A stretch of 23,113 bases of DNA from a virus: IMG/VR virus record IMGVR_UViG_3300020405_000023, positions 1-23,113 of that record, one strand, 5' to 3'. This document shows positions 1,662 to 20,722 of the stretch, one piece after another; within the stretch, counting starts at the first letter, position 1, and the number at the start of each line of letters is the position of its first letter. Below the pieces are notes generated by a model. That model searched no databases. It saw only the letters and a program-made list of their open reading frames with translations, and was not told where the DNA came from. The translations under genes were made by a program, and so were the position numbers.

Positions 1662-2741
1662 TTAAGCCACTAAAAACCCAGAAAAAGCCGTATAAAGATT
1701 TGAGGAATCTGCATATATTCCCGAACCCTGTACATAAATTGAAGCGTGATCGTTTGCACTAAGATAAACAGCAGAAGAAGCAGAAACTGCTGGATAAGTA
1801 TTACCAGCACCATTACTGTTATTTTCATACGCTATCATTATATAACCGCTTCCATTTATAAGAAGATTAACTGATACAGTTTGAGTGCCGACAGAACCTC
1901 CATTATATCCAAAACCAACAAAATTAAATTGATAAAATCCAGATACTGGAGCAGTAAATCTGCCAGTAGAAGTGCTATAATGACTACCCTGATTTACAGC
2001 AACTGTTTGAAATTTTATAACTTGCCCAGTCTCCCATGTATTACCATTATTTCCAGCATTACTTCTAGCTTGAAAATGAGGTTGGTTTGGTGCTACTACA
2101 CGACCACTACCATCAATATGAAGATAACCACTTCCTCCTGCTCCAAGATATAAAAAATCGGTGTTGTGGTCATAACTAATATATCCACGATATCTTGCGT
2201 CTCCCGATGTTCCATCTGCAAAAGCTAAATACCCTCTATGTGTAGTGCTATTTACAATCGTCATACCACCTTCGTCTCCAGCAGTAACAACAAAATCATC
2301 TGAATAATAATTACTAGGAGTTGTAGTATTAACACCTACTTTATCAAGAGCAGCATCTACTTTTAAAGTGTCTGTGCCTCCCGTATTTACAGTTACATCA
2401 CCAGTAACAGTTACATTACCAGTAAACGTACCTGTTGACGCACTTAACGCACCATTATTTGGATGACTTACTGTACCCACTGTCCTAAATAAGTAATACA
2501 CAAAAATGTTATTACCAGAATTATTTGATGGTGCGCCTGTAAATGTAAGTGTAGTTCCGTTACTTACTGCATACGCTACAGATGGTTCTTGTATAACACC
2601 ATCTACAGATACAAGTATGTCTTCATCAGAACCTACTGCATGATCTAATGTAAATGCAGTTGTAGAACCATCACCAGAAAATTGTGTCGCCGCCTTTGCT
2701 GCTACAAATCTATTTCCTGCTGTGTTACCTAAATACGGCAT
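1662..2741 (-). CDS. Tail fibre with C-terminal C1q-like domain
   Basis: 359 residues in three parts. Residues 1-95 (MPYLGNTAGN..., LVSVDGVIQEPSVAY, NNIFVYYLF) match the plan of the N-terminus of the fibre at 1-604 and probably anchor it. Residues about 95-225 form a shaft with repeated GTFTGNVTVTGDVTV-type strands, DKVGVNTTTPS and LYLGAGGSGYLHIDGSG. Residues about 235-359 look like a C1q/TNF-type jelly roll: GRFTAPVSGFYQFNF, VSVNLLINGS, SSAVYLSANDHASIYVQG and a C-terminal FSGFLVA strand. C1q-like tips trimerise and commonly bind ligands, so this is a candidate receptor-binding protein. Its start overlaps the stop of 2741-3097 (TAATG). Confidence 0.8.
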   Translation of the reverse strand: MPYLGNTAGNRFVAAKAATQFSGDGSTTAFTLDHAVGSDEDILVSVDGVIQEPSVAYAVSNGTTLTFTGAPSNNSGNNIFVYYLFRTVGTVSHPNNGALSASTGTFTGNVTVTGDVTVNTGGTDTLKVDAALDKVGVNTTTPSNYYSDDFVVTAGDEGGMTIVNSTTHRGYLAFADGTSGDARYRGYISYDHNTDFLYLGAGGSGYLHIDGSGRVVAPNQPHFQARSNAGNNGNTWETGQVIKFQTVAVNQGSHYSTSTGRFTAPVSGFYQFNFVGFGYNGGSVGTQTVSVNLLINGSGYIMIAYENNSNGAGNTYPAVSASSAVYLSANDHASIYVQGSGIYADSSNLYTAFSGFLVA

Positions 2742-4666: not shown

Positions 4667-5314
4667 CTATGTTCTTGGTCTGGCGGGTAAACCAACTCTG
4701 TTTGCGTCTGTATTCTCTCTTGCTTCTCCTAAATCTTTCAAGCGTTCCATATATTGCAAGTATGTATTATTATAGTTTTGAATAACATCTGTCTCGCCCT
4801 TCATAAAAGTATAAGCTTCAATCAAAGATCCGTATAACAAAGCAAAAGGAGCATTAGTGCTAATCCAAGTGGTGCCACTATCCGCCCCTGCTGTTATACT
4901 AGTGGGTCTATAATAGTAATGTAATTCTATTGTGTAATTACTATTTGGTGTTGGCGCTAACATGAAATTGTTTTCATCAAATCTTGCATAATATTTTGGA
5001 AGTCCAGTTGTTGAGGCCGCTGGCGTATATTCTCTTAAATAATTAACATCTTTTTGCAGTAAAAAACTTTCAGACCCAGCCGTTGTTATTTGTAAAGAAA
5101 AAGATGCAAGATAGTCACTAGGAACCGTTAAAAACTGATCTGATGAAGTCAAAGCACTCGTTACATTTTTTCTAAATATATCTAGATCTACACTTTTGAA
5201 TATTTTTTCTTCTGCTGCTTTTATAAAATTATTTAAATTGTTAACAAAAGTAGTTTCACTATTATCTGTGTAATCTTGTATTGCTGTTTTTAATGTTGCT
5301 AACGTAAAACTCAT
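4667..5314 (-). CDS. Adaptor-type head-tail connector protein
   Basis: 215 residues from the ATG at 5314, right after the stop of the upstream gene (5316); an in-frame GTG at 5323 is an alternative start. The N-terminus MSFTLATLKTAIQDYTDN, a helix NNFIKAAEEKIFKSVDLD, then beta stretches (DQFLTVPSDYLASFSLQI), a P-KYYARFDENNFMLAP segment, ELHYYYRP and a helical C-terminal region (APFALLYGSLIEAYTFMKGE) match the SU10/P22-type adaptor proteins of marine phages. Such proteins form a 12-subunit ring under the portal and receive the tail. A second, distantly similar protein is at 5819-6487. The assignment rests on motif order and position, not a search. Confidence 0.75.
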   Translation of the reverse strand: MSFTLATLKTAIQDYTDNSETTFVNNLNNFIKAAEEKIFKSVDLDIFRKNVTSALTSSDQFLTVPSDYLASFSLQITTAGSESFLLQKDVNYLREYTPAASTTGLPKYYARFDENNFMLAPTPNSNYTIELHYYYRPTSITAGADSGTTWISTNAPFALLYGSLIEAYTFMKGETDVIQNYNNTYLQYMERLKDLGEARENTDANRVGLPARPRT

Positions 5315-5315
5315 A

Positions 5316-5819
5316 TCATGCACTCACCGTTGTTGGCCCAGCTGTAGCTCGACTACCGCCCCCTACAATACCTCCTATTGTAGCCGTTTGTCCATTAGCT
5401 GTAAATGTATAAGTATCTGTTGTTACAACCGTAATACTGTAGCCAGCAGATTGTTCTAATACAGCCTTTGTAAAACCATCAAAGCCATTCACTGTTCTAA
5501 ATCTAACAGTGTCACCCGTAGTTCTACCATGACCAAACTCTCTTACCGTTATTACGCCTGACCCTGAAGAACTAGATATAAAAGGATTTAAAACTAAAAG
5601 AACTTCTACGTCATTTTCTGTTCTGCTAGGCCTAGCATCTCGTAAAGCTTCAGCATCTGAAACGGTTCTAAAAGGGCCTAATTGGGGATGTTTGGCTTCA
5701 AATTCATCAGGACCCACTAAAGAACCGTTCCATTCCTTTTTTAGATCACGGTATCTATATTTCATACCTGATCTATCCGATATACCAAAAGCGTGTTTAC
5801 CTGTTGCAAATCTTGCCAT
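5316..5819 (-). CDS. Conserved virion-region protein (MARFATGKHAFGISDRSG type)
   Basis: 167 residues. The first 60 residues are strongly patterned: MARFATGKHAFGISDRSG, KYRYRDLKKEWNGSLVG, DEFEAKHPQLGP. This part is nearly invariant in marine phage homologues I remember. The C-terminal 90 residues form a Gly/Thr-rich beta domain (GVITVREFGHGRTTGDTVRF, TKAVLEQSAGYSITVVT, TYTFTANGQTATIGG) like a small immunoglobulin-type sandwich ending GGGSRATAGPTTVSA. It lies between the two adaptor-type genes, so a head-tail completion or decoration protein is likely. The function has not been established as far as I know. It starts inside the upstream stop (TAATG at 5819). Confidence 0.75.
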   Translation of the reverse strand: MARFATGKHAFGISDRSGMKYRYRDLKKEWNGSLVGPDEFEAKHPQLGPFRTVSDAEALRDARPSRTENDVEVLLVLNPFISSSSGSGVITVREFGHGRTTGDTVRFRTVNGFDGFTKAVLEQSAGYSITVVTTDTYTFTANGQTATIGGIVGGGSRATAGPTTVSA

Positions 5820-6487
5820 TAATTAGACCTCAAATAAGCATATTGTGGACTTACAGTAAAGCTTGATCTATCACGATCTTCTCCCATCGCTCGTTCAAAC
5901 TCTTCCTCGTAAATAGCTTTTAACATTTGTGTTCTTTGAGGTGCTTTTTTCAAAGAGAGATAATAGGCTAATCCTGCCGTTAAACAAGGGTAAAATCTAA
6001 ACGGAACATCCATAGTATTAACTTGAGAATCTACGTCTTCTATTCTTGTTAAAGCATCATAATGTATAACATCCGTGCTGTTCTCAGGGGTCGGCCATAT
6101 TTTTAAATTAGGAGTTATCTGACGATCTAAAAAAAATTGTGTGGGTCTACCTGTGGTGCTCTTGTTAGGAACGGCTAAATCATCTGATCTACTTACTCTA
6201 TTCATAGAAAAATCTGTGCCAGAACGTCTTACAACTAAATTTAAAATATCTATCACATCCGTTGCTAAGGAATATTCTCTAGTTCCAGAAGTAAGAGCTT
6301 GCGTTCTTTGTGTTATAGTCCATTGATTTAGACCTCTGTTTGCCCACTCTGCAAACATCAGATTTAAGGATCTTCTAGCTGTAGTTAAATCATAACCTGT
6401 TCTTATTTCTAAACCACATCTTTCATAGGCTTCTTCTACATATTCTGCGGCATCAGGTTCAAAGTTTGTTGAATTAGATGTTGCCAT
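5819..6487 (-). CDS. Head-tail connector / tail-tube-A-like protein
   Basis: 222 residues, highly charged and helical at the start: DAAEYVEEAYERCGLEIRTG, then LTTARRSLNLMFAEWANRGLN with the W-T-I segment. Next are beta strands (TREYSLATDVIDILNLVVRR, PTQFFLDRQITPNLKIWPTP, VIHYDALTRIEDV) and the helical end (FRFYPCLTAGLAYYLSLKKA, RTQMLKAIYEEEFERAMGED). The A..a.eacg......g......Rrslnlm..eWan.g..lW pattern is typical of gp4/TTPA-like connector proteins. It probably forms a ring below the portal. An ATG at 6487 sits 1 base past the stop of 6489-6863, and it overlaps the downstream gene by TAATG. Confidence 0.75.
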   Translation of the reverse strand: MATSNSTNFEPDAAEYVEEAYERCGLEIRTGYDLTTARRSLNLMFAEWANRGLNQWTITQRTQALTSGTREYSLATDVIDILNLVVRRSGTDFSMNRVSRSDDLAVPNKSTTGRPTQFFLDRQITPNLKIWPTPENSTDVIHYDALTRIEDVDSQVNTMDVPFRFYPCLTAGLAYYLSLKKAPQRTQMLKAIYEEEFERAMGEDRDRSSFTVSPQYAYLRSN

Positions 6488-6488
6488 A

Positions 6489-6863
6489 TCATGTCCTTAC
6501 TTTTGTTTTTTTACGTCTATCAGACATAACAACACCACAACCTCTTGCAACAATAGTTCCTTTTTCTGTCTTGCCATTATAAGGTCTTTTAGCTTTAGTT
6601 GACGTTACTGCTCCGCCTGATCCCATTTTTTTAACCTTTGCAGGTTTAGTGTTTGCAACAAAAGTTTTACCTTTTGCGCCCTCTCTTTTCTTTTTACGAG
6701 CTGTTGCAGCTCGTTGTGACTTAGTTAAGCTGTTGGCTTTTGATCTAGGCAAACACCTATCAGGATTTTTTTTATCCTTTGAAGTCCCACATTTTCCCTT
6801 GATTTTCCCATCAGTTCCTATGCGAACCCAATCTTGTTTTACCCAATCTTTAAGTGCACCCAT
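6489..6863 (-). CDS. Small Lys/Arg-rich virion-region protein
   Basis: 124 residues, about a quarter Lys or Arg. The N-terminus MGALKDWVKQDWVRIG, then KGKCGTSKDKKNPDRCLPRS with two Cys, and SLTKSQRAATARKKKREG. The middle has KKMGSGGAVTSTKAKRPYNG, and the end has VARGCGVVMSDRRKKTKVRT. I recognise the type from marine phages (related in pattern to the DUF6321-like protein at 7695-7979) but know no role. The paired Cys could bind a metal or form a disulphide. The strong positive charge fits binding of packaged DNA. It starts within the TAATG overlap with 6863-7090. Confidence 0.75.
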   Translation of the reverse strand: MGALKDWVKQDWVRIGTDGKIKGKCGTSKDKKNPDRCLPRSKANSLTKSQRAATARKKKREGAKGKTFVANTKPAKVKKMGSGGAVTSTKAKRPYNGKTEKGTIVARGCGVVMSDRRKKTKVRT

Positions 6864-7090
6864 TATTTTTTACCTTTTGCGCCTTTAGCATAATTAGGAT
6901 CTTTACAATACTTTGAAGCAGCCATATTTGCATATGCGCTTGGATATGTATCAAAAGTTCTTTTAGCCCAAGCTTTTCCAGCAGGACAAATTTTACTTCC
7001 TTTAGATTTTTTTGAGGCAGCTCCACCCCTTTTAAAATAAGTAACATTTAATTTAGAAGGTTTGGGTCCTGTTCTTACTACAGATGTCAT
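6863..7090 (-). CDS. Small basic protein, ICPAGKAWAKRTF type
   Basis: 75 residues, very basic. Main motif: ICPAGKAWAKRTFDTYPSAY followed by ANMAASKYCKDPNYAKG, with Cys 35 and Cys 62 roughly 27 residues apart and conserved aromatic positions. The N-terminal half includes LNVTYFKRGGAASKKSKG, and the C-terminus is GAKGKK. I recognise this motif from marine phage gene clusters next to connector genes but know no function. It overlaps its upstream neighbour by ATGA at 7087-7090 and its downstream neighbour by TAATG, so it belongs to the same tightly coupled series of basic proteins. Confidence 0.75.
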   Translation of the reverse strand: MTSVVRTGPKPSKLNVTYFKRGGAASKKSKGSKICPAGKAWAKRTFDTYPSAYANMAASKYCKDPNYAKGAKGKK

Positions 7091-7374
7091 GTTTTCCTCG
7101 CTTTCCTAATCTGTTCTTTACCTTTTTTAAAAATATTAGCCACTTTATTTTTTTTCATAACCTTTGCTCTTTGCTCACCAACAGTAAGTATTTGTATCTT
7201 TCTCGCAAATGGTTTATCAATTCTTTTAACTTTCGCAACTGTTGCTCTTGCGTCTGCTTCTGTGGCAAACTTGATACTAACGGTGTCTTTTGGATTCTCA
7301 TCCGTGTATAATCTTCTACCCGAACCTTTTGGTTTTTTTCCCGTTCCAATTTTAGGATCTTTTTCTTTTGCCAT
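7087..7374 (-). CDS. Small basic protein, GRRLYTDENPKDTV type
   Basis: 95 residues, strongly basic. Key motif near residue 15-32: KPKGSGRRLYTDENPKDTVS followed by IKFATEADARATVAKVKRI. The rest is a helical, Lys-rich tail (QRAKVMKKNKVANIFKKGKE, IRKARKT). The GSGRRLYTDENPKDT motif occurs in many marine phage proteins in my memory, with unknown role. The start codon at 7374 lies inside the 3' end of the 44-residue gene at 7352-7486. Possible DNA-associated virion protein by charge and neighbourhood. Confidence 0.72.
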   Translation of the reverse strand: MAKEKDPKIGTGKKPKGSGRRLYTDENPKDTVSIKFATEADARATVAKVKRIDKPFARKIQILTVGEQRAKVMKKNKVANIFKKGKEQIRKARKT

Positions 7375-7486
7375 TTTTTAATAATCCAGATAATACTTTC
7401 GATTGACCCGCGTGAGCTTTTGAAGCTTTTTTTAATTTATTTGCAACTGTTTTAATTTTTCGTTTTGCTTTTCCTGTTAATACCAT
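7352..7486 (-). CDS. 44-residue basic mini-protein
   Basis: A short gene of 45 codons with an ATG at 7486 that shares TAATG with the stop of the upstream gene. The product is nearly all one basic amphipathic helix: MVLTGKAKRKIKTVANKLKK, then ASKAHAGQSKVLSGLLKNGK and RKRS. It ends 23 bases inside the next gene. The 'LKKASKAHAGQSK-L' segment is one I have seen in small marine phage proteins. Tight coupling on both sides supports that it is real. Function unknown; nucleic-acid binding is possible from charge alone. Confidence 0.6.
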   Translation of the reverse strand: MVLTGKAKRKIKTVANKLKKASKAHAGQSKVLSGLLKNGKRKRS

Positions 7487-7695
7487 TAGTTACTCATTCC
7501 TATAAATATAGACACAATTCCTATCAACTGTAAAACAGCTCCAAAAATAATAGCCCATATACGGGCATCAATCTTATCTATTTGTTTTTGTAAATGCGTT
7601 AAATGATTGCTCTCAAGACGATCCATCGTATCTTCAAGAATAGCCATTCTCTTATCTAAATCATGCATAAAATCTTTTTCTCTTTTAGTAGCCAT
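7486..7695 (-). CDS. XhlA-like coiled-coil membrane protein
   Basis: 69 residues from the ATG at 7695, which shares TAATG with the upstream stop; an in-frame ATG at 7707 would add 4 residues. The N-terminal two thirds form a charged coiled-coil helix (REKDFMHDLDKRMAILEDTM, DRLESNHLTHLQKQIDKID). One hydrophobic segment follows: IWAIIFGAVLQLIGIVSIFI. This is the layout of the haemolysin XhlA family, small proteins that cooperate with holins at the inner membrane. A lysis-accessory role is therefore possible, although the recognised holin lies 5.5 kb upstream. A membrane-anchored structural role cannot be excluded. Confidence 0.7.
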   Translation of the reverse strand: MATKREKDFMHDLDKRMAILEDTMDRLESNHLTHLQKQIDKIDARIWAIIFGAVLQLIGIVSIFIGMSN

Positions 7696-7979
7696 TAACA
7701 CTTCCACCTTCTTCTAGCTTGTCTCAAACGACTATTAGGATTTTTAGCGGCCTTTGGAAATTTTTTCATTTGTCCTGCAGACCTAGCACAAAAAGACTTT
7801 CTTCTTTTTGCATCCTTGCTACCTTTTTTTACTTTGCCTGTAACAGCTGTTTGTAATTTACTCCCAGGATTATCTCTTCTATATTTTGCAACACCTGCCT
7901 TAGTCATTCCCGCCCCAGCTTTAGTAGGGCGGAAATATTTTTTAGTTTTAGGCGGCTGTTTATCTTTTTTCCTAGCCAT
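7695..7979 (-). CDS. DUF6321-like basic protein
   Basis: 94 residues, extremely basic. It contains TKAGAGMTKAGVAKYRRDNP, GSKLQTAVTGKVKKG, then AKRRKSFCARSAGQMKKFPK and a C-terminus of NSRLRQARRRWKC. The RRKSFCAR...(M/A)G-MKK...R..KALRxWKC pattern is what I recall for the DUF6321 family of marine viruses; full length. The function of the family is unknown. The two Cys (in FCAR and the last residue) are conserved features of the pattern. Neighbouring genes 6489-7486 are also basic. It overlaps both neighbours (TAATG at 7979 and 7695). Confidence 0.8.
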   Translation of the reverse strand: MARKKDKQPPKTKKYFRPTKAGAGMTKAGVAKYRRDNPGSKLQTAVTGKVKKGSKDAKRRKSFCARSAGQMKKFPKAAKNPNSRLRQARRRWKC

Positions 7980-12009: not shown

Positions 12010-12429
12010 TTAATAATGTAAAACGTCTTCAGGGTCCATTATTTTTGCTAAAATCTCATCATCGTTCAAGATCCGTACTTCTCCGCCATCTATTTTAAAA
12101 CGAGATCCTGCATATCGGGCAAACATTACCCAATCCTTTTCTTCACACCAAGGGCCTGTAGGAAACTTTTCTGTATCTTTGTATGCCAAAGACCCTGCTT
12201 TCAATACATAACCAACTTGTGTGGAAATCTGTCCCTCTTCTACAATCTTATCTGGTAATAAAATACCGCCTTCAGTTTTACCTTTACCTCTATATGGTAA
12301 TATTAAAAGCCTCCATCCTGTAGGCTTAGGCATTCTCTCTATCAAACTCTTTTCTATTAAAGTTGGATCTAAAACCCTGTCATTGGGGTCTACATATGTT
12401 TTATTTAACTCAGTAGCTGTTGCTTCCAT
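12010..12429 (-). CDS. GroES-like co-chaperonin
   Basis: 139 residues, longer than bacterial GroES (about 97) because of an N-terminal extension of about 35 residues. The Cpn10 features are clear: PTGWRLLILPYR at the fold start, the mobile-loop segment GKGKTEGGILLPDKIVEEG (residues 48-66, containing the hydrophobic GGILL that docks into GroEL), VGYVLKAGSLAYK, the conserved GPWCEEKDWVMFARYAGSRF and a C-terminal GEVRILNDDEILAKI. Phage versions (compare gp31 of T4) replace host GroES so that large capsid subunits fit into the chaperonin cage. Location just upstream of scaffold and capsid fits. No GroEL partner is in the window, so host GroEL is presumed. Confidence 0.82.
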   Translation of the reverse strand: MEATATELNKTYVDPNDRVLDPTLIEKSLIERMPKPTGWRLLILPYRGKGKTEGGILLPDKIVEEGQISTQVGYVLKAGSLAYKDTEKFPTGPWCEEKDWVMFARYAGSRFKIDGGEVRILNDDEILAKIMDPEDVLHY

Positions 12430-12976: not shown

Positions 12977-13131
12977 GTCTTCTTTTTCTTCATTGGTTTT
13001 CTTGCTGTCTTCTTAGCCTGAGCAAAGTTTTTAGCTGTAGGCGCTCCTTTTGCACCTTTGCTTCTCATCTTCTCACCGCTTCCTGCAGCTATTCTTTTTC
13101 TTTTTTTATTTATATTTTCATACAAACTCAT
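12973..13131 (-). CDS. Small basic protein, MSLYENINKKRK type
   Basis: 52 residues beginning MSLYENINKKRKRIAAGSGE, then KMRSKGAKGAPTAKNFAQAK and a Lys-rich tail. I recognise the opening LYENIN-KRK and the GEKMRS-G-KGAPT motif from marine phage proteins of unknown function. ATGA coupling with the holin gene upstream (stop at 13128) and with the zinc-ribbon micro-gene downstream supports that it is translated. Its basic nature resembles the proteins at 6489-7979. Confidence 0.7.
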   Translation of the reverse strand: MSLYENINKKRKRIAAGSGEKMRSKGAKGAPTAKNFAQAKKTARKPMKKKKT

Positions 13132-13523
13132 TTTGTTAGTCCTTTCTGCTTTTCATATGTTCTGAGTCCTCCGATGCCAAGCATGCCGCCGAGAACCGTT
13201 AAAAGTGTGCCCATGTCAAATTCAGGCAGCTCTGGTAGTTCTGCACCAGCAAAACTTGCACCAAATATAATTAAATCTTTTACGATAAAGTGATAGGCAA
13301 AAGCGATCGCGCAGACCCACCCAACTGCTGGCCGCCAACCACCCTTAAATATAGAACCGCTTGCAGCTTCTGCTTTGTTAATCTCTAACTGAGCAAGCAG
13401 AGCCTCCTGCGCATGTTTTTCAGACATGGTGGCTATCTCGTGGGCAAGTTTCGCCTTCTGATCTGCGTCAGGTATAAATTTATCTAGAAGTCCCGTTACT
13501 GGACCTATCAACGCTTGTAACAT
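13128..13523 (-). CDS. Holin, 3TM superfamily (GTA-type)
   Basis: 131 residues. The N-terminal part is amphipathic and charged (LLDKFIPDADQKAKLAHEIA, then MSEKHAQEALLAQLEINKAE with Glu/Ala heptads), followed by KGGWRPAVGWVCAIAFAYHF, a hydrophobic IVKDLIIFGASFA stretch, and MGTLLTVLGGMLGIGGLRTY. The GGWRP-VGWVCA...AYHF motif and the final L..LGG.LGIGG.RTYEK are the marks of the GTA_holin_3TM family of alphaproteobacteria and their phages. The holin forms pores in the inner membrane to release endolysin at lysis. No endolysin was identified in the window. It shares TAATG with the gene upstream. Confidence 0.82.
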   Translation of the reverse strand: MLQALIGPVTGLLDKFIPDADQKAKLAHEIATMSEKHAQEALLAQLEINKAEAASGSIFKGGWRPAVGWVCAIAFAYHFIVKDLIIFGASFAGAELPELPEFDMGTLLTVLGGMLGIGGLRTYEKQKGLTK

Positions 13524-13846: not shown

Positions 13847-14049
13847 CAGTATACTTTTACCTTATCAGAATTGATACTCGGAACTAACTTACAAATACAC
13901 TCGTATGTAACACTTTGACCCACCTCATTCTTGTACTCCTGCTTACTTAAAAATTTTGTGTAGTAAGTACAATCATTGACAGACTTAAAATACACGGCTC
14001 CCTGAGCTACACCATTCATATAACAGGCAAGCATGAAAGCCGTCACCAT
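13846..14049 (-). CDS. Small exported or membrane-anchored protein
   Basis: 67 residues. The first 20 residues (MVTAFMLACYMNGVAQGAVY) are hydrophobic and may be a short signal or anchor. The remainder is polar: FKSVNDCTYYTKFLSKQEYK, then YECICKLVPSIN with two Cys (CIC). Three Cys outside the hydrophobic segment could pair in the periplasm. Overlaps on both sides (TAATG upstream, TGATG downstream) place it in the lysis/membrane cassette. A spanin-like or periplasmic role is speculative. Confidence 0.65.
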   Translation of the reverse strand: MVTAFMLACYMNGVAQGAVYFKSVNDCTYYTKFLSKQEYKNEVGQSVTYECICKLVPSINSDKVKVY

Positions 14050-14249
14050 TACATCAAGTCTTTGTAATAACTCATGTCACCGCGAACGCTGTAAACCTCA
14101 CCGCCGCCTGCCATCTTTACAGGTTTAACTTTATCACCATGACCCTGCTTAATTAAAAACTCTTCAAAAGACATAGTATCTGATGCTGGTCCATCAAAAT
14201 ATTCTTCTCTTAAATCTTTTTCAGTTCTTTTGTCACCTTTTTTAGCCAT
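14049..14249 (-). CDS. Small protein with KMAGGGEV motif
   Basis: 66 residues, charged: KKGDKRTEKDLREEYFDGPA, then DTMSFEEFLIKQGHGDKVKP and a C-terminal VKMAGGGEVYSVRGDMSYYK. The Met-x-Gly-Gly-Gly-x-Val segment also appears in the long protein at 16845-18761 (MKAGGGVISL) and resembles KKMGSGGAV in the basic protein at 6489-6863. I recall such glycine-rich motifs in marine phage virion-region proteins, but have no function for them. It is one base from the upstream gene and coupled to the downstream one by TAATG. Confidence 0.7.
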   Translation of the reverse strand: MAKKGDKRTEKDLREEYFDGPASDTMSFEEFLIKQGHGDKVKPVKMAGGGEVYSVRGDMSYYKDLM

Positions 14250-14250
14250 G

Positions 14251-14415
14251 TTATTTACCCTTCTTTTTAGTAATCTTTTTTAACATCTTACTTCCTTCAG
14301 CTGCTCCAATTATCCCTGATGGTCCTGCAGCTTTAAAAGGCATTAATGTTATGGCTGCTCCACTTCCCGCTGCCGCTCCTAAATTTACTACAGATGTTTT
14401 ATTTTTTTTAGCCAC
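14251..14415 (-). CDS. 54-residue small protein with GTG start inside portal end
   Basis: The GTG at 14415 is preceded by an ideal AAGGAGG six bases upstream, which itself codes the last glycines of the portal. The product has a basic N-terminus (MAKKNKTSVVNL), a Gly/Ala-rich segment GAAAGSGAAITLMPFKAAGP, SGIIGAAEGSKMLKK and a basic tail ITKKKGK. Helical, weakly hydrophobic middle; a peripheral membrane or DNA-binding role is possible. Translation start overlap with the portal gene (8 bases) suggests coupling. No known family recognised. Confidence 0.65.
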   Translation of the reverse strand: MAKKNKTSVVNLGAAAGSGAAITLMPFKAAGPSGIIGAAEGSKMLKKITKKKGK

Positions 14416-16825
14416 CTTGACCTCCTTGTTGTTTCATTTGCTCTCTTCTCTCAGCTGCATTAATCCTTGCCGCAGTCTGCTTCTCCTGACTTTCTAGTCT
14501 CTTATCAAACTGTGCATCTCTTTGTGCAACCTTCTGCGCTTCAAGTCCAAGTTTCTGCCTGTCAATCTGAGCATCATTCTGTTCAGCTTGGGCCTTAACC
14601 TGTAACTCCTTCTCCTTCAACTGTACTAACGGATCAGGCTTACCCGCTCCAGATAGTTCAGCACTCAAGGCCTTCAATCTAGACATACCCTCAGCTACAT
14701 ACTGAGCTGTCTTAGCCTCTAAGTCAATCATCTGTTCTTCTGATACAGCCTCACCACCGCCAGCTTGTATCAAATCAACCGCAGCTCGCTCACGAGCTCC
14801 TATCTTTACATGCTCCATGATGTGCTTTTGTAAAGTCACAGCCATCTGTGGTGACTGAGCTACCAAAGGTGTAGAGCCAAAAACCATGTGAGCCATAATG
14901 TGAGCTTCGTGATCCTGTCCTTCAAATGCCACTAAACTTATCTGATCAAGAACATCTATGTTCTCCTGTGCAGGATCTTTTGGTACAGCTTCAGGTTCAG
15001 GTGTTCTCTTCAATATTCTGTCAATATCTCTTACACCCAACGCTTCATACATATCTCTAAATACTTCGTATAAGTTGTGCATATCAGGCGCGGCTGTCGC
15101 AAGCTGCATCTTGGTTTGTGCTAACGAGATCCTCTGTGCCTGACTGAATATATTAGGATTAGATACAGGTAATACATCTACACGGTCATCAAAGTCAGTT
15201 CTCTTTATACTGCCATCCACACCTGTAATACTATACGGATACTCGTCAGGTAAAAACTCTGCCATGACATTAGATAACAACTTAAACTCTAACTTCATTG
15301 CATAATGCAATCTCTTATGAACAGCAGACATGACCCGTGAGCCCTGTTCCAACATCGCTATGGTAGTACCCACGGCTGCCTGTTGATTGCCATCGCCTAC
15401 TTTTAAATCTGTTATGGTAGCGAATCGTTGTCCTGCATTAACTACAAACCCTAACAAACTCATCAAAGTCTGGTCAGGTCCCTTGAATGGTAATGACATC
15501 AAGCTTGCTTTGATATCACCTCCTGGGGCATCTACATCTCTAAACTCTCCAGGCTGTAAAGGCTCATCATCATCCCTGATCCGTAGGCCGCGGGCTTTAA
15601 ATCCTGCTGGCAAGTTCGATAATGTGCCTGCATCAATCAACTGTCTCAACGCAGCAGTCGCGGTTCTTGATAAGCCGCCAATAGTATGTATTAAACCTAA
15701 ACCATAGAACCCAAAGCCTGGAAGAAACTTGTAATGTACAAAATATTGTATCTTCGCTTTCTTCTTGTCATCTTCTTTGTAGTTCCTGCGAATCGCCAGT
15801 ATCTGGCCATTATCCTGTGATATGGTGACAATATACGGTACCTTGATTCCTGTTGGCTCACCGTCCTCGTCCATCTCTTCGTAACCTTCAAGATCCAGAT
15901 CTACATGACACTCCAATAATGTACAGTCATAATCTATCTGAGATGGATACATACCATCTATTCTCTCAATCTCGTCAGCTAAACTGCCAGAATCAGACTG
16001 AGCTGGTATCACAGGTATGTCTTTGTAAAAACCAGATACCTGTCTCTTTCTCAAATCATTCAAGCTCATCTTCAAAACTTGTGTGATGTTAGGACAAGTT
16101 TCTAAATCACTCGTGTTGTACGGTACAATCAAATTTTCTGCAGGCACAAACTTACTTACAGCTCGGTCCAAGTTCTCATCATAGTAAACTTTCTTAAACG
16201 TACTACCTGCTAGCGGCAAGTAAAATAGCATCTGATCTAACTCAGGCGTGTACTCTTCCATAATACAGGTTATGTAATAGTTCATAAACTCCTTTACACG
16301 TTGAGCTTGGTCTTCTTTTTCAGGAGTGCTTGAGCCAAGCACAGTTGTTCGCACGGGTCCAGTGGGCGGCAACAATTCATTAAAGGCTTGAGCTTGGAAC
16401 TGCGTAGCGGACTCTGCAAGCAAGGGGTGCGTGACACCGCTGGCTCCTCTGAAAGGCTGTGACCTTTCTTCGTAACTAAATCCCAACAACTCCAAACCGT
16501 TAGCGAAAGCATCTTCCCACTCCTGTCTACCACTCTTGTTCTCATCAAACTCACCAATCAACTCACTGGCAATCCTACCCAGTAAATCATCTGGCATGTC
16601 CTCAGCTAAATTAGCAGAGAAATCCATGTCAGCATCGCGCTTGTCCCGTGGGTCAAAGTCTATAACAACACTGCCATCGTCCTCTTCCATGATCTCCACG
16701 TTATCAGGAACAGGGTCCATGTCTAATGTTTCAGGCATTTCAACTTCTACTTCAGCCGCCAACTCTTCTTCGTTCAACTGAGATGGCACATTCTCCATCA
16801 TGCTGCCTATTGGTTCTCTTGCCAT
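14408..16825 (-). CDS. Portal protein (P22-type, large)
   Basis: 805 residues, in the size range of P22-type portals (about 725). An acidic N-terminal arm (EELAAEVEVEMPETLDMDPV) is followed by the portal core: SELIGEFDENKSGRQEWEDA, GLELLGFSYEERSQPFRGAS, GVTHPLLAESATQFQAQAFN, ELLPPTGPVRTTVLG, then PLAGSTFKKVYYDENLDRAV and SKFVPAENLIVPYNTSDLE. A long alpha-helical C-terminal barrel-type region follows, with a coiled coil rich in Gln/Lys (KEKELQVKAQAEQNDAQIDR) and a Gly/Gln-rich end. The portal sits at one vertex, carries DNA entry and exit, and docks the terminase. AAAGGAGATTTAC before the ATG is a strong ribosome-binding site. The length, motif order and position between terminase and scaffold make the call secure. 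Confidence 0.88.
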   Translation of the reverse strand: MAREPIGSMMENVPSQLNEEELAAEVEVEMPETLDMDPVPDNVEIMEEDDGSVVIDFDPRDKRDADMDFSANLAEDMPDDLLGRIASELIGEFDENKSGRQEWEDAFANGLELLGFSYEERSQPFRGASGVTHPLLAESATQFQAQAFNELLPPTGPVRTTVLGSSTPEKEDQAQRVKEFMNYYITCIMEEYTPELDQMLFYLPLAGSTFKKVYYDENLDRAVSKFVPAENLIVPYNTSDLETCPNITQVLKMSLNDLRKRQVSGFYKDIPVIPAQSDSGSLADEIERIDGMYPSQIDYDCTLLECHVDLDLEGYEEMDEDGEPTGIKVPYIVTISQDNGQILAIRRNYKEDDKKKAKIQYFVHYKFLPGFGFYGLGLIHTIGGLSRTATAALRQLIDAGTLSNLPAGFKARGLRIRDDDEPLQPGEFRDVDAPGGDIKASLMSLPFKGPDQTLMSLLGFVVNAGQRFATITDLKVGDGNQQAAVGTTIAMLEQGSRVMSAVHKRLHYAMKLEFKLLSNVMAEFLPDEYPYSITGVDGSIKRTDFDDRVDVLPVSNPNIFSQAQRISLAQTKMQLATAAPDMHNLYEVFRDMYEALGVRDIDRILKRTPEPEAVPKDPAQENIDVLDQISLVAFEGQDHEAHIMAHMVFGSTPLVAQSPQMAVTLQKHIMEHVKIGARERAAVDLIQAGGGEAVSEEQMIDLEAKTAQYVAEGMSRLKALSAELSGAGKPDPLVQLKEKELQVKAQAEQNDAQIDRQKLGLEAQKVAQRDAQFDKRLESQEKQTAARINAAERREQMKQQGGQGG

Positions 16826-16844: not shown

Positions 16845-18761
16845 CTATACCATGAATTTTATAAAAGGTTCAATACCTTGTGGTCCGCGGTTCATGTTTA
16901 CCGCTTTATCCTTCAAAGATATTACACCGCCACCTGCTTTCATCGTATCAGGGCTCTGTCTTTTGTTAGCTATCATTTGACTTAATAATTTACTAAAGCT
17001 AGTTGCTTCGTCATCATTTTTAAATTGAATGAAATCTTTTTTGTCCAAAGAAGCTTGATAAGCGTCTTCTATCGTTGGATATCTAACTAACTCTCCTTCA
17101 ACTAAACGTATAGTAGGGAACAATCTACCATCAATAGAAGCTGTCCGAACTGTTTCTAAACTTTCTGTCATAGGCGTAGAAGGATCTAAAGCACGACTTA
17201 ACCATGCAGGTCTTTCTCCCAAAGGTAGTATGGCTCCGCCTTCTTCTTTCATTATGTCTGGGTTTGTTCTTTCTCTTGGATCGTTTTTACCAAACTTGCC
17301 TTTCAAAACAGCTTTGCTACCTTTGGGTCTGTCCGTTAACATAACATAGGATAAACTTCCTGCATCCTCTACTGCATTGTAATATGGTAAATGTGTAAAA
17401 CCCTCTTCTGCTAATTTTTTTCTAAACTCCCCTATAAATTTACGAAAGTCACTAAAAGGAAAGTTGGGCTTGTCCCCAACTAGATGACCCATATCGAATG
17501 CTTTAGGAGAATAAGCATCACCGAAACGATCTTTATTATATTCTATAAGTAGATGCATATTAATACCTTCTTCATCCCAAACATCTACATCTTTTACCCT
17601 AGAGCCTGCTTTTCCTTTAGGGGTGTAAGGTTTACTTAAATCTGCTTTCAAAGGATAGGTGCCACCAAATGTGGTTCTTGGTATTAGATTACCTGCTTCA
17701 TCATATCCTAAATTACCTTTGGGAGTTTTAGATAAAGGACCAAGTCTTAAAGCATTCAAAGCTTCAAACCTTTCTTTAGCAGCCTTTGATGTCCCAACAT
17801 GTGTACCAAGAGCATCCAAAGCACTAGGAGCTTTGTCTGGATCAAAAACTGTAAACCCTAACTCTGCATCAGGAGTATAATGAAAAACATCTTGCGGAGT
17901 GTTAGATCTTATAAATTTACCTACAGATTGTTTCTGTCTGCCAGATCCATAGTTGCTACGCTCGCCCTTTGGTAAAGTTTTTTCATAGTCTAATCTATAA
18001 TCAGTTATAGGCGCATCTCCAGCAGCCTTTTTAATTACATCCTTGTATAAGCTGGAACCTTCTACAACAACTTCATCATAACCCTCAATAGTATTTTTAA
18101 TACGGTTGACCTGAGTAGGATCGTTCAAAAGATTATTTGCTATCTCTTTATCCATCTTTACATTGTAGTTTGGTATCTTTGTGTCTCGCCGTATCAAACC
18201 ATATTTGGCAGACATAATGGCTAAATCTACATTCTCTTCAGGAATACCCTGCTTCTTTATACTTTTGAACATATCTCCTGTGTAACGATCAAATGCTGCC
18301 ATATCCCCAGGATCTGGACATTTATCTGCACTACACGACACAATCAAAAGTTTACGTCCTTTTTTAATTTCAGGACTAAACAAACTTCCTGATCCTAGAT
18401 TTAAATCGTCAGGGATTTTAGAAGCTGCCATACCTAGTGCACCTTTTGGGACTGCCTTTGGAAGTAATTGAGATCCTAGTAAGGTACCGCCAGTTACATT
18501 CATAGACGTATCAAAAGCTAGTTGCTGTATTTCCTGCGGGCTAAGTTCGCCGCGCATAAGAGCACCAAACTTCATAATACCACTGGAAGCATCCTTTATC
18601 GCTTGTGGCATACCCATCTGAATATCACTCAAACCCACCTCACCAAAAGGCGTGGTTTTAGGAACAGTCATTGGTAAAAAATAACCTATGCCAGCTAAAG
18701 GTCTTCTATCTTGCCCCGTAGGGGGTAAAGCATCACTAGGTTGAAAATCTTCTCTAGCCAT
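16845..18761 (-). CDS. DUF6884 (YaaA-like) plus ADP-ribosyltransferase-like virion-region protein
   Basis: 638 residues from the ATG at 18761; a TTG three codons earlier is an alternative. Residues about 130-245 look like DUF6884: GRKLLIVSCSADKCPDPGDM, DRYTGDMFKSIKKQG, LAIMSAKYGLIRRDTKIPNY; this matches C-S-x-x-K, YTG-MF and L-SAKYGLI of that family. Residues about 290-480 resemble an ADP-ribosyltransferase-type fold: VFHYTPDAELGFTVFD, ALGTHVGTSKAAKERFEAL, GTYPLKADLSKPY. The C-terminal third has GRLFPTIRLVEGELVRYPTI with ASIDG before it, like virion internal proteins, then MKAGGGVISLKDKAVNM and RGPQGIEPF. The gene lies between terminase and portal, overlapping its neighbour by 8 bases. A product carried in the virion and injected to modify a host target is an inference; each family call is by eye. 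Confidence 0.65.
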   Translation of the reverse strand: MAREDFQPSDALPPTGQDRRPLAGIGYFLPMTVPKTTPFGEVGLSDIQMGMPQAIKDASSGIMKFGALMRGELSPQEIQQLAFDTSMNVTGGTLLGSQLLPKAVPKGALGMAASKIPDDLNLGSGSLFSPEIKKGRKLLIVSCSADKCPDPGDMAAFDRYTGDMFKSIKKQGIPEENVDLAIMSAKYGLIRRDTKIPNYNVKMDKEIANNLLNDPTQVNRIKNTIEGYDEVVVEGSSLYKDVIKKAAGDAPITDYRLDYEKTLPKGERSNYGSGRQKQSVGKFIRSNTPQDVFHYTPDAELGFTVFDPDKAPSALDALGTHVGTSKAAKERFEALNALRLGPLSKTPKGNLGYDEAGNLIPRTTFGGTYPLKADLSKPYTPKGKAGSRVKDVDVWDEEGINMHLLIEYNKDRFGDAYSPKAFDMGHLVGDKPNFPFSDFRKFIGEFRKKLAEEGFTHLPYYNAVEDAGSLSYVMLTDRPKGSKAVLKGKFGKNDPRERTNPDIMKEEGGAILPLGERPAWLSRALDPSTPMTESLETVRTASIDGRLFPTIRLVEGELVRYPTIEDAYQASLDKKDFIQFKNDDEATSFSKLLSQMIANKRQSPDTMKAGGGVISLKDKAVNMNRGPQGIEPFIKFMV

Positions 18762-19260
18762 CTCTTCCAAGAACCTGTGCTAGCTGGGCCATGAGGCGTG
18801 GGTCGTTGGTCTTGGACTTTCCTGCTTTTTTCATTATACGGCTCATAACTAACATCTCTCTGTCAGCAGGGATCTCCTGTATCTCAATAGTTGTTTTCTT
18901 CATCAAACCTTCTATTCCTGGGGACCCACCATATTTCAAAGGGATAGCTTTTGGCTTTACATAATTAATATCTAATAAATCAATACCGCCTAGAGCAGGC
19001 TCTGCAAAACCCTCAAACTCTAACATCTTTTTACTAATAGCATCTAACGGTTCTATAAATTTTTCAGGCGCTCTAGTTGTGTCTTGATCCAAAGGATCTA
19101 ACGCATTTGGATCGTCCATAAGTCTTTGTATAATATCATTAGGGTCTTCAGTTAAGTTATCAAGATCTTGTTCTAAGAAAAATTGATCACCAAGATCAGT
19201 ATCGCTATCAAAAATTGGAATGTCTTCTTTGTTTGCGTTGCGTACTACACTGTCAGCCAT
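18754..19260 (-). CDS. Acidic protein between terminase and DUF6884 gene, unknown
   Basis: 168 residues from the ATG at 19260 with GAGG five bases before it; a GTG at 19266 is possible. The N-terminal half is very acidic: EDIPIFDSDTDLGDQFFLEQ, DLDNLTEDPNDIIQRLMDDP. The middle has LEFEGFAEPALGGIDLLDIN, and the C-terminal third is helical and basic: REMLVMSRIMKKAGKSKTND, PRLMAQLAQVLGRDG. The pattern (acidic plus a C-terminal helix that could contact another protein) would fit an accessory to packaging or the portal. It could be a divergent small terminase, but I see no helix-turn-helix evidence. It starts 8 bases from the terminase stop. Confidence 0.6.
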   Translation of the reverse strand: MADSVVRNANKEDIPIFDSDTDLGDQFFLEQDLDNLTEDPNDIIQRLMDDPNALDPLDQDTTRAPEKFIEPLDAISKKMLEFEGFAEPALGGIDLLDINYVKPKAIPLKYGGSPGIEGLMKKTTIEIQEIPADREMLVMSRIMKKAGKSKTNDPRLMAQLAQVLGRDG

Positions 19261-19267
19261 CGTCACC

Positions 19268-20722
19268 TCAATAATATGCTCTCACTTGAGCAGACCCATC
19301 GCTCTCTTCCCAATCGTCTGAAGGTAACTGTACAAAATTACCCTGACGATATCGCATTAAAGCCTGTGTCATGCTATCCACAAGGTCATCATACTCTCCA
19401 TTTGGAAAAGCTGCAACCTCTTCTATCATCTCCTCTGCAAAAGTCTCATCGGGGGCCCAAACCATCCCAGCTTCAAACAAAGGTGATACAGAATGTACTC
19501 TGGATACCTTATCATTACCTTTACTCGGTGTAAAGTTAACAACAGGTATGCCCATGTTCCGTAGTTCGTGGGTCAAAGGTAGCCCCGTTGCCTTGGCTTC
19601 TATGATAACTGTTTCGGGGTCCCAATAATTATACTGCTCTAACGCAACATTCTTTAATTCTGGAAAGTCCCACCTGTCTTTTATACTATCTAACAGTATC
19701 AAAGCGGGCTGGCCCCCTATTTCTTCTGGATAAAAAACGCCCCATGTGGTTATCGCACTGTAATCTGACGTTTCACGCTTTGAAAAAGCCGTATCGTAGC
19801 TCTGAATGACGTATTGTAGGTTAGGAACATTCTTTTTTTCCCATTTTCTCCACCATTCTCGCTTAATTATTGCATTTTCTTCGCCTGTAGGCTGCTGTTG
19901 GTACTGTGCATTCCATTTACTGGGCGGTATTGACGCTTTTACTGCTGTTAAATCGTCCAAACTCCAATATTCTGGCCAGCAGGGCTGCCCATTTTCAAAA
20001 ATAGCAGGCAGTTCTACTATCTCCCACTGGTCTGCAATAGGATCTTTAGCCATAGAACGTAGTAACTGACCTGTTAAATCCTTTTCTGACCACCTAGTCT
20101 GCACTAAAACGATACTTCCACCAGGCTGTAGTCTCTGTCGGGGGCCCCCAGTGTACCAATCCCATGCATCTTCAAAACCATTGTTACTCATCGCGGTCTG
20201 TTCCGAGTGCGGATCATCGATTATGACAAGATCACCACCTCGACCAGCTAAGTTTGATCCAACACCGACAGCATAATACATGCCGCCCTTGTTTGTATCC
20301 CATCTACCCGATGCTTTACTGTCAGCTGCAAGGCTCACATTAGGAAAAACTGTTTTGAACTCGTCCGTTTCAAGAAGATTCTTTACCTTTCTACCAAAAT
20401 TAACAGCAAGTTCTGTCGTGTGAGTTGCCTGAATGATTTTCATACTAGGGTTTCTACCCATCATCCATGCAGGAAACAAAAAAGATGCAAACTCTGATTT
20501 AGTATGTCGGGGTGCCATATTAATTATTAGACGTTTCAGTTCTCCACGAGCTACTCTTTCTAACTTTTCTGATATTATTTCGTGGTGCCTGCCCTGAATA
20601 AAGCTTGGCCAGATGTTTTTTACAAAACTTAAAAACGTATTTTGACACTCCTCATTCTTCTCTAACTGAGCTAGTCTTAGTTCAAGTTTAAGTATCCTCT
20701 CGTCTTGTATTCTACCATCCAT
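19268..20722 (-). CDS. terL: Terminase large subunit
   Basis: 484 residues. ATPase half: a variant Walker A NMAPRHTKSEFAS (residues 69-77), a Walker B-type GGDLVIIDDP (about 163-170), and a coupling motif VLVQTRWSEKDLTGQLL. The C-terminal RuvC-like nuclease carries Asp in QSYDTAFS (D310), Glu in VIIEAKATG (E375) and Asp in YDDLVDSMTQAL (D445/D449). This is the ATP-driven motor and DNA cutter that fills the prohead. Typical length for the family. AAGGGG precedes the ATG. No small terminase was recognised next to it. Confidence 0.93.
   Translation of the reverse strand: MDGRIQDERILKLELRLAQLEKNEECQNTFLSFVKNIWPSFIQGRHHEIISEKLERVARGELKRLIINMAPRHTKSEFASFLFPAWMMGRNPSMKIIQATHTTELAVNFGRKVKNLLETDEFKTVFPNVSLAADSKASGRWDTNKGGMYYAVGVGSNLAGRGGDLVIIDDPHSEQTAMSNNGFEDAWDWYTGGPRQRLQPGGSIVLVQTRWSEKDLTGQLLRSMAKDPIADQWEIVELPAIFENGQPCWPEYWSLDDLTAVKASIPPSKWNAQYQQQPTGEENAIIKREWWRKWEKKNVPNLQYVIQSYDTAFSKRETSDYSAITTWGVFYPEEIGGQPALILLDSIKDRWDFPELKNVALEQYNYWDPETVIIEAKATGLPLTHELRNMGIPVVNFTPSKGNDKVSRVHSVSPLFEAGMVWAPDETFAEEMIEEVAAFPNGEYDDLVDSMTQALMRYRQGNFVQLPSDDWEESDGSAQVRAYY

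What the first reader, a model, noticed from the sequence alone, without database searches (positions are those of the whole stretch)
16845..18761. Late-gene protein joining a DUF6884 domain to an ADP-ribosyltransferase-like region
Seen: C-S-x-x-K, YTGDMF and SAKYGLI motifs at residues about 130-245; VFHYTP...GTHVGT.KAAKERF and a TYPLKADLSKPY region at about 290-480; and a C-terminal segment resembling virion internal proteins. Known: DUF6884 is YaaA-like, linked to DNA damage or nucleotide chemistry in some contexts; ART folds modify proteins or nucleic acids using NAD. Inference: a packaged enzyme placed between terminase and portal would be ready to act on the host at injection. I do not know this combination as a described system.
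Basis: partly seen in the sequence, partly recalled or inferred. Interest (0 to 1): 0.72.

Follow-up and report, generated by a model that had tools for sequence, protein, structure and literature searches.

The report
Swappable phage cargo enzyme, packaging untested
A marine virus of bacteria carries, between its two DNA-packaging genes, a multi-part protein built from interchangeable enzyme pieces ending in a conserved tag; one piece folds like an NAD-using ADP-ribosyltransferase and another like a nucleic-acid-binding protein, so it looks like a weapon that the virus may inject, although nobody has yet shown it inside the virus particle.

Summary
The 638-aa late protein (16845-18761, minus) has a DUF6884/YaaA-type domain (Pfam E 3e-7; CxxxK and SAKxG invariant in 23/23 relatives) and an ART-fold domain: an AlphaFold2 model of the ART alone (pLDDT 80) matched only ART folds in all 50 listed VIA-align rows, the top one being residues 1419-1600 of the cyanophage A4 pre-ejectosome. 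H294, H321 and E465 are (nearly) invariant in 37 relatives. The larger finding is the locus. Between terminase and portal genes that stay mostly 82-99% identical, this gene is rebuilt from modules. Of 39 complete slots found through the portal alone, 27 have DUF6884+ART (11 with an added HExxH module), 6 ART without DUF6884, 2 HExxH only, 2 an empty 40-aa remnant, 2 no tagged cargo. In 37 of 39 the product ends in one conserved tag (GGVxxLKDKAVNM...GIEPFIKFM); two-unit proteins carry a tag after each unit; every testable tagged ORF (52/52) directly precedes the portal. Best reading: a polyvalent-type, virion-delivered ART cargo with a cargo tag. DUF6884 is optional, not an obligate partner. 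Packaging, activity and target are untested. New variant of a known kind (polyvalent proteins; works like T4 Alt/internal proteins).

The parts
16845..18761 (-). modular cargo protein, 638 aa (ATG start)
   Evidence: relatives
18417..18761 (-). N-terminal module (PPTGQDRR type), residues 1-115; replaced by other N-terminal types in relatives, several with a hydrophobic Gly/Ala-rich stretch
18033..18347 (-). DUF6884 (PF21818)/YaaA-type domain, residues 139-243; CxxxK at 143-147 and SAKYG at 184-188
17253..17918 (-). ART-fold domain, residues 282-503; H294 (strand 1), H321 (strand 2), R331, E465 (before strand 5)
16935..17240 (-). extra module, residues 508-609 (GGAILPLGERPAW...), present or absent in relatives about 95-97% identical in DNA
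16848..16943 (-). conserved C-terminal tag, residues 607-638 (MKAGGGVISLKDKAVNMNRGPQGIEPFIKFMV)
18754..19266 (-). upstream 170-aa ORF, overlaps the cargo start; size-variable in relatives
19268..20722 (-). terminase large subunit, left border of the slot
14408..16825 (-). portal protein, right border of the slot

Best explanation
The gene encodes a polyvalent-type cargo protein of a marine phage related to the HTVC023P/HTVC027P pelagiphages. Made late with terminase and portal (shown by position only), it is most likely loaded into the head through its conserved C-terminal tag (inferred), ejected with the DNA (inferred), and its ART domain then uses NAD+ with the H294/H321/E465 set to modify a host macromolecule or to deplete or neutralise an NAD-linked defence (inferred from fold). 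DUF6884 is an optional second module that probably binds nucleic acid (inferred from the YaaA/DUF6884 literature). The locus evolves by exchanging whole modules between the terminase and a constant right end of tag and portal (shown), as expected if the tag is what matters to the virion and the modules are what matter to the host.
For: Slot mosaicism between conserved borders: gap 153-3952 bp in related contigs; 39 complete slots found via the portal alone give several architectures, 37 with the end tag. Relatives with DNA mostly 95-97% identical around the slot differ by whole modules. Empty 40-aa N-end plus C-tag alleles in L080/L081. One tag per enzymatic unit: 34 proteins have two tags. 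52/52 testable tagged ORFs directly precede the portal. ART fold: model pLDDT 80, pTM 0.79; all 50 listed rows are ART folds, top = cyanophage A4 pre-ejectosome, Z 7.1; a viral 'PolyVal ADP-ribosyltransferase' at probability 1.00. Another ART family in the same slot: L165 has the same DUF6884 and tag but a PF18760 ART-PolyVal (E 2.2e-9). Constraint: dN/dS about 0.075 (DUF6884), 0.09 (ART), 0.23 (tag), against 0.05 portal and 0.03 TerL. Literature: ARTs near terminase/portal are predicted to be packaged, about 44% of phage ARTs in such contexts (PMC9503650); T-even internal proteins are highly diverse with only the capsid targeting sequence conserved (PMC3012670).
Against: No virion proteomics. 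The best Z is 7.1 and no PDB Foldseek hit reaches E<0.001; profile comparison of these ARTs with L165's canonical ART finds nothing. Conservation of the tag could reflect a recombination crossover site or proximity to the portal. L058 and L091 have no tagged cargo and L080/L081 an empty remnant, so the enzymes are dispensable. Substrate and activity are unknown.
Confidence: 0.6

Rival explanations
1. The protein is made late and acts inside the producing cell (for example on host NAD+, translation or superinfecting phages) without being packaged; the slot is merely a convenient moron insertion site in the late operon.
For: Some sampled genomes lack the cargo (L058, L080, L081); module gain and loss resembles moron turnover. 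No packaging data exist.
Against: An end tag is kept on 37 of 39 slot products irrespective of cargo and repeated after each unit, which a cell-internal enzyme would not need. The top structural match is a domain of a phage pre-ejectosome.
Confidence: 0.22
2. The conserved tag is not a packaging signal but a recombination scar or crossover point: short shared DNA that lets modules be exchanged, conserved because it borders the portal gene.
For: Tags sit at module borders and inside two-unit proteins; swaps in near-identical phages break at or next to the tag.
Against: The tag is protein-constrained (dN/dS about 0.23), and distant relatives keep its pattern with changed sequence (GGIAGLSDIARDMFKGPKGIG). 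Both roles could hold together.
Confidence: 0.3
3. The protein is mainly a structural or ejection (pilot) protein, and the ART and DUF6884 folds are degenerate scaffolds without activity.
For: Position between terminase and portal; the best structural match is a pre-ejectosome protein; hydrophobic N-terminal stretches in many relatives.
Against: Structural ejection proteins are essential, whereas this one is reduced to 40 aa in L080/L081 and swaps whole domains; CxxxK, SAKxG, H294, H321 and E465 stay nearly invariant while the surroundings vary.
Confidence: 0.12

Closest known systems
Phage polyvalent proteins (Iyer et al. 2017, PMC5512222)
   Same: Unrelated enzymatic domains in one polypeptide; ART and HExxH metallopeptidase-like modules; late genes of portal-terminase phages; domain shuffling; predicted delivery with DNA
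   Different: DUF6884 module (YaaA is not mentioned in that paper); ART outside the PF18760 model with H-H-E instead of H-Y-D; repeated conserved tag closing each unit; 360-1139 aa
T4 Alt and CTS-tagged internal proteins (PMC3012670; PMC9503650)
   Same: Virion ART acting on the host at injection (Alt); hypervariable cargo with one conserved targeting sequence (internal proteins)
   Different: No sequence relation found; here the tag is C-terminal and repeated, and several enzymes sit in one chain; Alt is R-S-E type
Cyanophage A4 pre-ejectosome protein (PDB 9k3a chain B, residues 1419-1600)
   Same: Closest solved fold of the ART domain, in a phage ejection complex (Z 7.1, rmsd 5.4, 142 aligned)
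   Different: 13% identity; no sequence-level match; rest of the protein not compared
RES-domain toxins ParT and MbcT
   Same: ART fold over the whole domain (Z 6.1-6.2)
   Different: Stand-alone toxin-antitoxin toxins; 6-8% identity
DUF6884/YaaA family (PF21818, PF03883; PMC11701544)
   Same: Curated cut-offs passed; CxxxK and SAxxG motifs; fold matches to AF0587 (2q07, Z 7.2) and YaaA (5caj, Z 5.5)
   Different: Here one module of a phage late protein; no TGT/deazaguanine gene in 9 related records, unlike phage phiFN37

Membership tests
DUF6884 (PF21818) | passes Pfam gathering score | tested here: met
   31.0 vs 30 bits; 9 of 9 related records over the cut-off
DUF6884 (PF21818) | CxxxK and LSAxxG motifs (PMC11701544) | tested here: met
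   invariant in 23/23 as C-S-x-x-K and [ML]SAKxG
DUF6884 (PF21818) | cantaloupe fold as in YaaA | tested here: inconclusive
   YaaA 5caj Z 5.5 over 138 residues, AF0587 Z 7.2; model confidence moderate, FtsZ and others score similarly
DUF6884 (PF21818) | nucleic acid binding | not testable with these tools
   needs a binding assay
ART superfamily | ART fold | tested here: met
   model pTM 0.79; all 50 listed chains are ART folds, Z up to 7.1; same region in the earlier two-domain model
ART superfamily | conserved catalytic-type residues in strands 1, 2 and before strand 5 | tested here: met
   H294 37/37, H321 37/37, E465 36/37; geometry not inspected
ART superfamily | NAD+-dependent activity | not testable with these tools
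   needs biochemistry
ART-PolyVal (PF18760, Tox-ART-HYD2 clade) | sequence model match | tested here: not met
   no hit at E<=1 for the window protein nor at 0.05 in 49 relatives; only L165 matches
ART-PolyVal (PF18760, Tox-ART-HYD2 clade) | H-Y-D active site (PMC5512222) | tested here: not met
   H-H-E pattern
Phage polyvalent proteins | two or more unrelated effector-type domains in one chain, shuffled between relatives | tested here: met
Phage polyvalent proteins | late-gene context in a portal-terminase phage | tested here: met
Phage polyvalent proteins | domains typical of the class (ART, zincin MPTase) | tested here: inconclusive
   PF18760 in L165; PF18818 MPTase-PolyVal only below cut-off in one relative; HExxH modules by motif
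Phage polyvalent proteins | packaged and delivered with DNA | not testable with these tools
   needs virion proteomics
T4-type capsid-targeted internal proteins | conserved sequence on otherwise diverse cargo | tested here: met
   tag at the C-end in 37 of 39 slots with differing cargo; the targeting role itself is untested
T4-type capsid-targeted internal proteins | N-terminal sequence removed by prohead protease (own knowledge) | tested here: not met
   the tag is C-terminal or internal, except L024/L032/L068 where a copy is near the N-end; cleavage untestable here

The most novel reading that the evidence does not exclude
A phage-encoded cargo-loading system: one conserved roughly 30-residue tag, repeated after each enzymatic unit, directs interchangeable effectors (H-H-E ARTs, DUF6884, HExxH modules and others) into the virion or marks where the chain is cut, giving a marine phage lineage a swappable set of injected enzymes.
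Probability: 0.35. Interest if true: 0.72.

Novelty: new variant of a known kind. Interest (0 to 1): 0.55.

Why it matters
If the tag loads cargo, it would be another natural portable signal (beside the T4 capsid targeting sequence) for packing enzymes into a phage head, here in phages related to those of abundant ocean bacteria, and it would make the roles of a new ART subfamily and of DUF6884 testable. It also offers a reason why closely related marine phages differ by whole modules right between terminase and portal.

Tried and rejected
Deazaguanine DNA modification (DUF6884 next to a TGT in phage phiFN37): no TGT in 9 related records, so rejected for this family, with the caveat that some records are fragments. 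Fixed DUF6884-ART partnership: rejected, since DUF6884 is absent in 8 of the 35 portal-found slots that carry an enzymatic unit ahead of the portal. Positive selection on the ART: a first pass gave a median dN/dS of 0.40, but that included near-saturated pairs; with pS<0.5 it is 0.09, so fast divergence is better explained by replacement with divergent alleles. R-S-E active site: no fitting conserved set. General virion-wide tag: no copy outside this gene in the loci held (the 'outside' rows are unmasked overlapping copies of the same gene), and all testable tagged ORFs precede the portal. Cellular or prophage relatives: the genome-contig scan found none. Virion-internal-protein resemblance of residues 508-609: no hit. 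Profile comparison with L165's canonical ART: nothing. PDB sequence searches: nothing relevant. No paper on the cyanophage A4 ejectosome in the library.

Full report
OBSERVATION. The finding lies on the minus strand: ATG at 18761, stop ending at 16845, 638 aa. Every quoted motif is present. Pfam places DUF6884 at residues 139-243 (31.0 bits, cut-off 30, E 3.1e-7) and YaaA over 154-247 (29.7 bits, cut-off 29.6). The gene follows TerL (19268-20722) and a 170-aa ORF and precedes the portal (14408-16825), all on one strand. Its ATG overlaps the stop of the upstream ORF (gATGgcTAG), which suggests translational coupling.

THE TWO DOMAINS. In 23 sequences covering both regions (A2), C-S-x-x-K and [ML]SAKxG are invariant, the two motifs that Pfam's authors name for DUF6884; they describe a cantaloupe fold shared with the DNA-binding YaaA and a possible role in DNA repair (PMC11701544). 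A model of both regions (pLDDT 67.8) matched archaeal AF0587 (Z 7.2) and E. coli YaaA (Z 5.5) with its first part and only ART-fold RES toxins with its second part; FtsZ and others score as well as YaaA there, so the DUF6884 fold match is supportive, not decisive. The ART alone, with 37 sequences (A3), gave pLDDT 80.2 and pTM 0.79. All 50 listed rows of the second look are ART folds: first a 142-residue match inside the cyanophage A4 pre-ejectosome (9k3a chain B 1419-1600, Z 7.1), then MbcT, ParT, other RES toxins, diphtheria-type and PARP-type catalytic domains. Foldseek against PDB alone gives nothing below E 0.001; against viral models it gives eight, and a protein named PolyVal ADP-ribosyltransferase at rank 10 with probability 1.00. 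H294 (strand 1) and H321 (strand 2) are invariant in 37/37 and E465 (before strand 5) in 36/37. This H-H-E pattern differs from H-Y-D of polyvalent ARTs and R-S-E of T4 Alt (PMC5512222).

THE LOCUS. A scan with the portal returned 80 loci, mostly 81-100% identical to the window portal. Between TerL and portal the distance runs from 153 to 3952 bp in these relatives (the more distant HTVC027P reaches 4266). Portal and TerL average 86% and 91% amino-acid identity over all pairs, DUF6884 68% and the ART 48%; in 300 matched pairs the ART is less similar than the portal in 98%. Among 39 complete slots found through the portal alone, so without bias to the cargo, 27 carry DUF6884+ART (11 with an HExxH module as well), 6 carry ART without DUF6884 (2 with HExxH), 2 carry an HExxH module alone, 2 (L080, L081) are reduced to MADPQQKKFSEVLSKMEAQDKAVNMTRRPQGIEPFIKFVV, and 2 (L058, L091) have no tagged ORF, L091 having a separate ORF with HELLH. 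Contigs whose DNA is otherwise mostly 95-97% identical to the window around the slot differ by whole modules: L027 N-ART-tag, L022 N-ART-extra-tag, L023 N-DUF6884-ART-tag, the window N-DUF6884-ART-extra-tag, L002 with a further module before DUF6884 (parts of the ART itself are 89-90%). In L165 the same DUF6884 and tag enclose a canonical ART-PolyVal domain (PF18760, E 2.2e-9). L163, L164 and L166 carry DUF6884 with a different, unidentified module.

THE TAG. 37 of the 39 slot products end in the pattern GG-V/I-x-x-L/M-K-D-x-A-V-x-M...GIEPFIKFM or a shortened form. Of 120 cargo sequences counted, 34 have two copies, one after each enzymatic unit, and 80 have one (loci of one contig were not all collapsed there). 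In L024, L032 and L068 a copy is near the N-end. A scan with the tag profile alone returned 80 loci; of the 54 new ones, 52 have the portal directly downstream and 2 are cut by the end of the sequence held. The tag therefore belongs to this slot and not to virion proteins in general. Its coding sequence is moderately constrained at protein level (dN/dS about 0.23; DUF6884 0.075, ART 0.09, portal 0.05, TerL 0.03).

MECHANISM. Shown: late position, modularity, ART fold, invariant residues, tag. Inferred: packaging, ejection, NAD+ chemistry, host target. The inference rests on three supports: ARTs encoded near terminase and portal are predicted to be packaged and injected, about 44% of phage ARTs being in such contexts (PMC9503650); T-even internal proteins are diverse defence proteins with only the targeting sequence conserved (PMC3012670); and the closest solved fold lies in a phage pre-ejectosome. 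DUF6884 is likely a nucleic-acid-binding accessory, but it comes and goes, so the ART cannot depend on it.

COMPARISON. The nearest class is the phage polyvalent proteins (PMC5512222), which join ARTs, metallopeptidases and other domains and are predicted to be delivered by phages. This protein fits in context and architecture, but its ART does not match the PF18760 model and its active-site pattern differs. Functionally it resembles T4 Alt plus capsid-targeted internal proteins; no common descent was found. The closest cultured phages by portal (about 50% identity) are HTVC027P, HTVC023P and DSL-LC04, whose slots hold other proteins. Within the searched open library no paper describes DUF6884 with an ART; subscription papers were not searched.

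LIMITS. The genomes are metagenomic fragments and the window is a 23-kb record; complete architectures were counted only where both borders are present. Architectures were called by motif patterns, not by full profiles. Structures are predictions and Z below 8 is modest, though the consistency over all rows is telling. No experiment shows packaging, activity or target.

Noticed in passing
window 18754-19266: Upstream ORF is also size-variable among relatives (about 133-372 aa) with conserved ends and a GGSPGIEGLMKK motif; a second variable protein in the slot.
   Followed up: partly
window 14049-14249: 66-aa ORF downstream of the portal ends KPVKMAGGGEVYSVRGDMSYYKDLM, loosely like the cargo tag.
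   Followed up: no
window 6489-7979: Run of small, very Lys/Arg-rich late proteins, possibly DNA-condensing virion proteins.
   Followed up: no
window 1662-2741: Tail fibre with a C1q domain (PF00386, E 1e-16) on a T7-tail-fibre-like N-end (below cut-off).
   Followed up: no
window 12010-12429 and 13128-13523: Phage GroES (Cpn10) and a GTA-type 3TM holin in the late module.
   Followed up: no
window 4667-5323 and 5819-6487: Two ORFs both match the SU10 adaptor family (PF24175).
   Followed up: no
L069/L161 contig (77,651 bases, G003): Two portal genes, 84% and 52% identical to the window's: two phages joined, or a real duplication.
   Followed up: no
L102 1648-5779 (HTVC027P gp41, gp42) and L101 3427-5904 (DSL-LC04, PcfJ-like): Different large proteins fill the same slot in cultured relatives and carry GG motifs such as ADGGRIGY.
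   Followed up: partly
L167 4025-4459 (Fusobacterium phage phiFN37): DUF6884-like ORF beside a queuine tRNA-ribosyltransferase, a ParB-like protein and a queuosine precursor transporter.
   Followed up: partly
L163, L164, L166, L139, L006: A shared unidentified module (EAMxEEGAxLE...GKIPxRRxxNY...ERELIV) occurs with DUF6884; perhaps another ART type.
   Followed up: no
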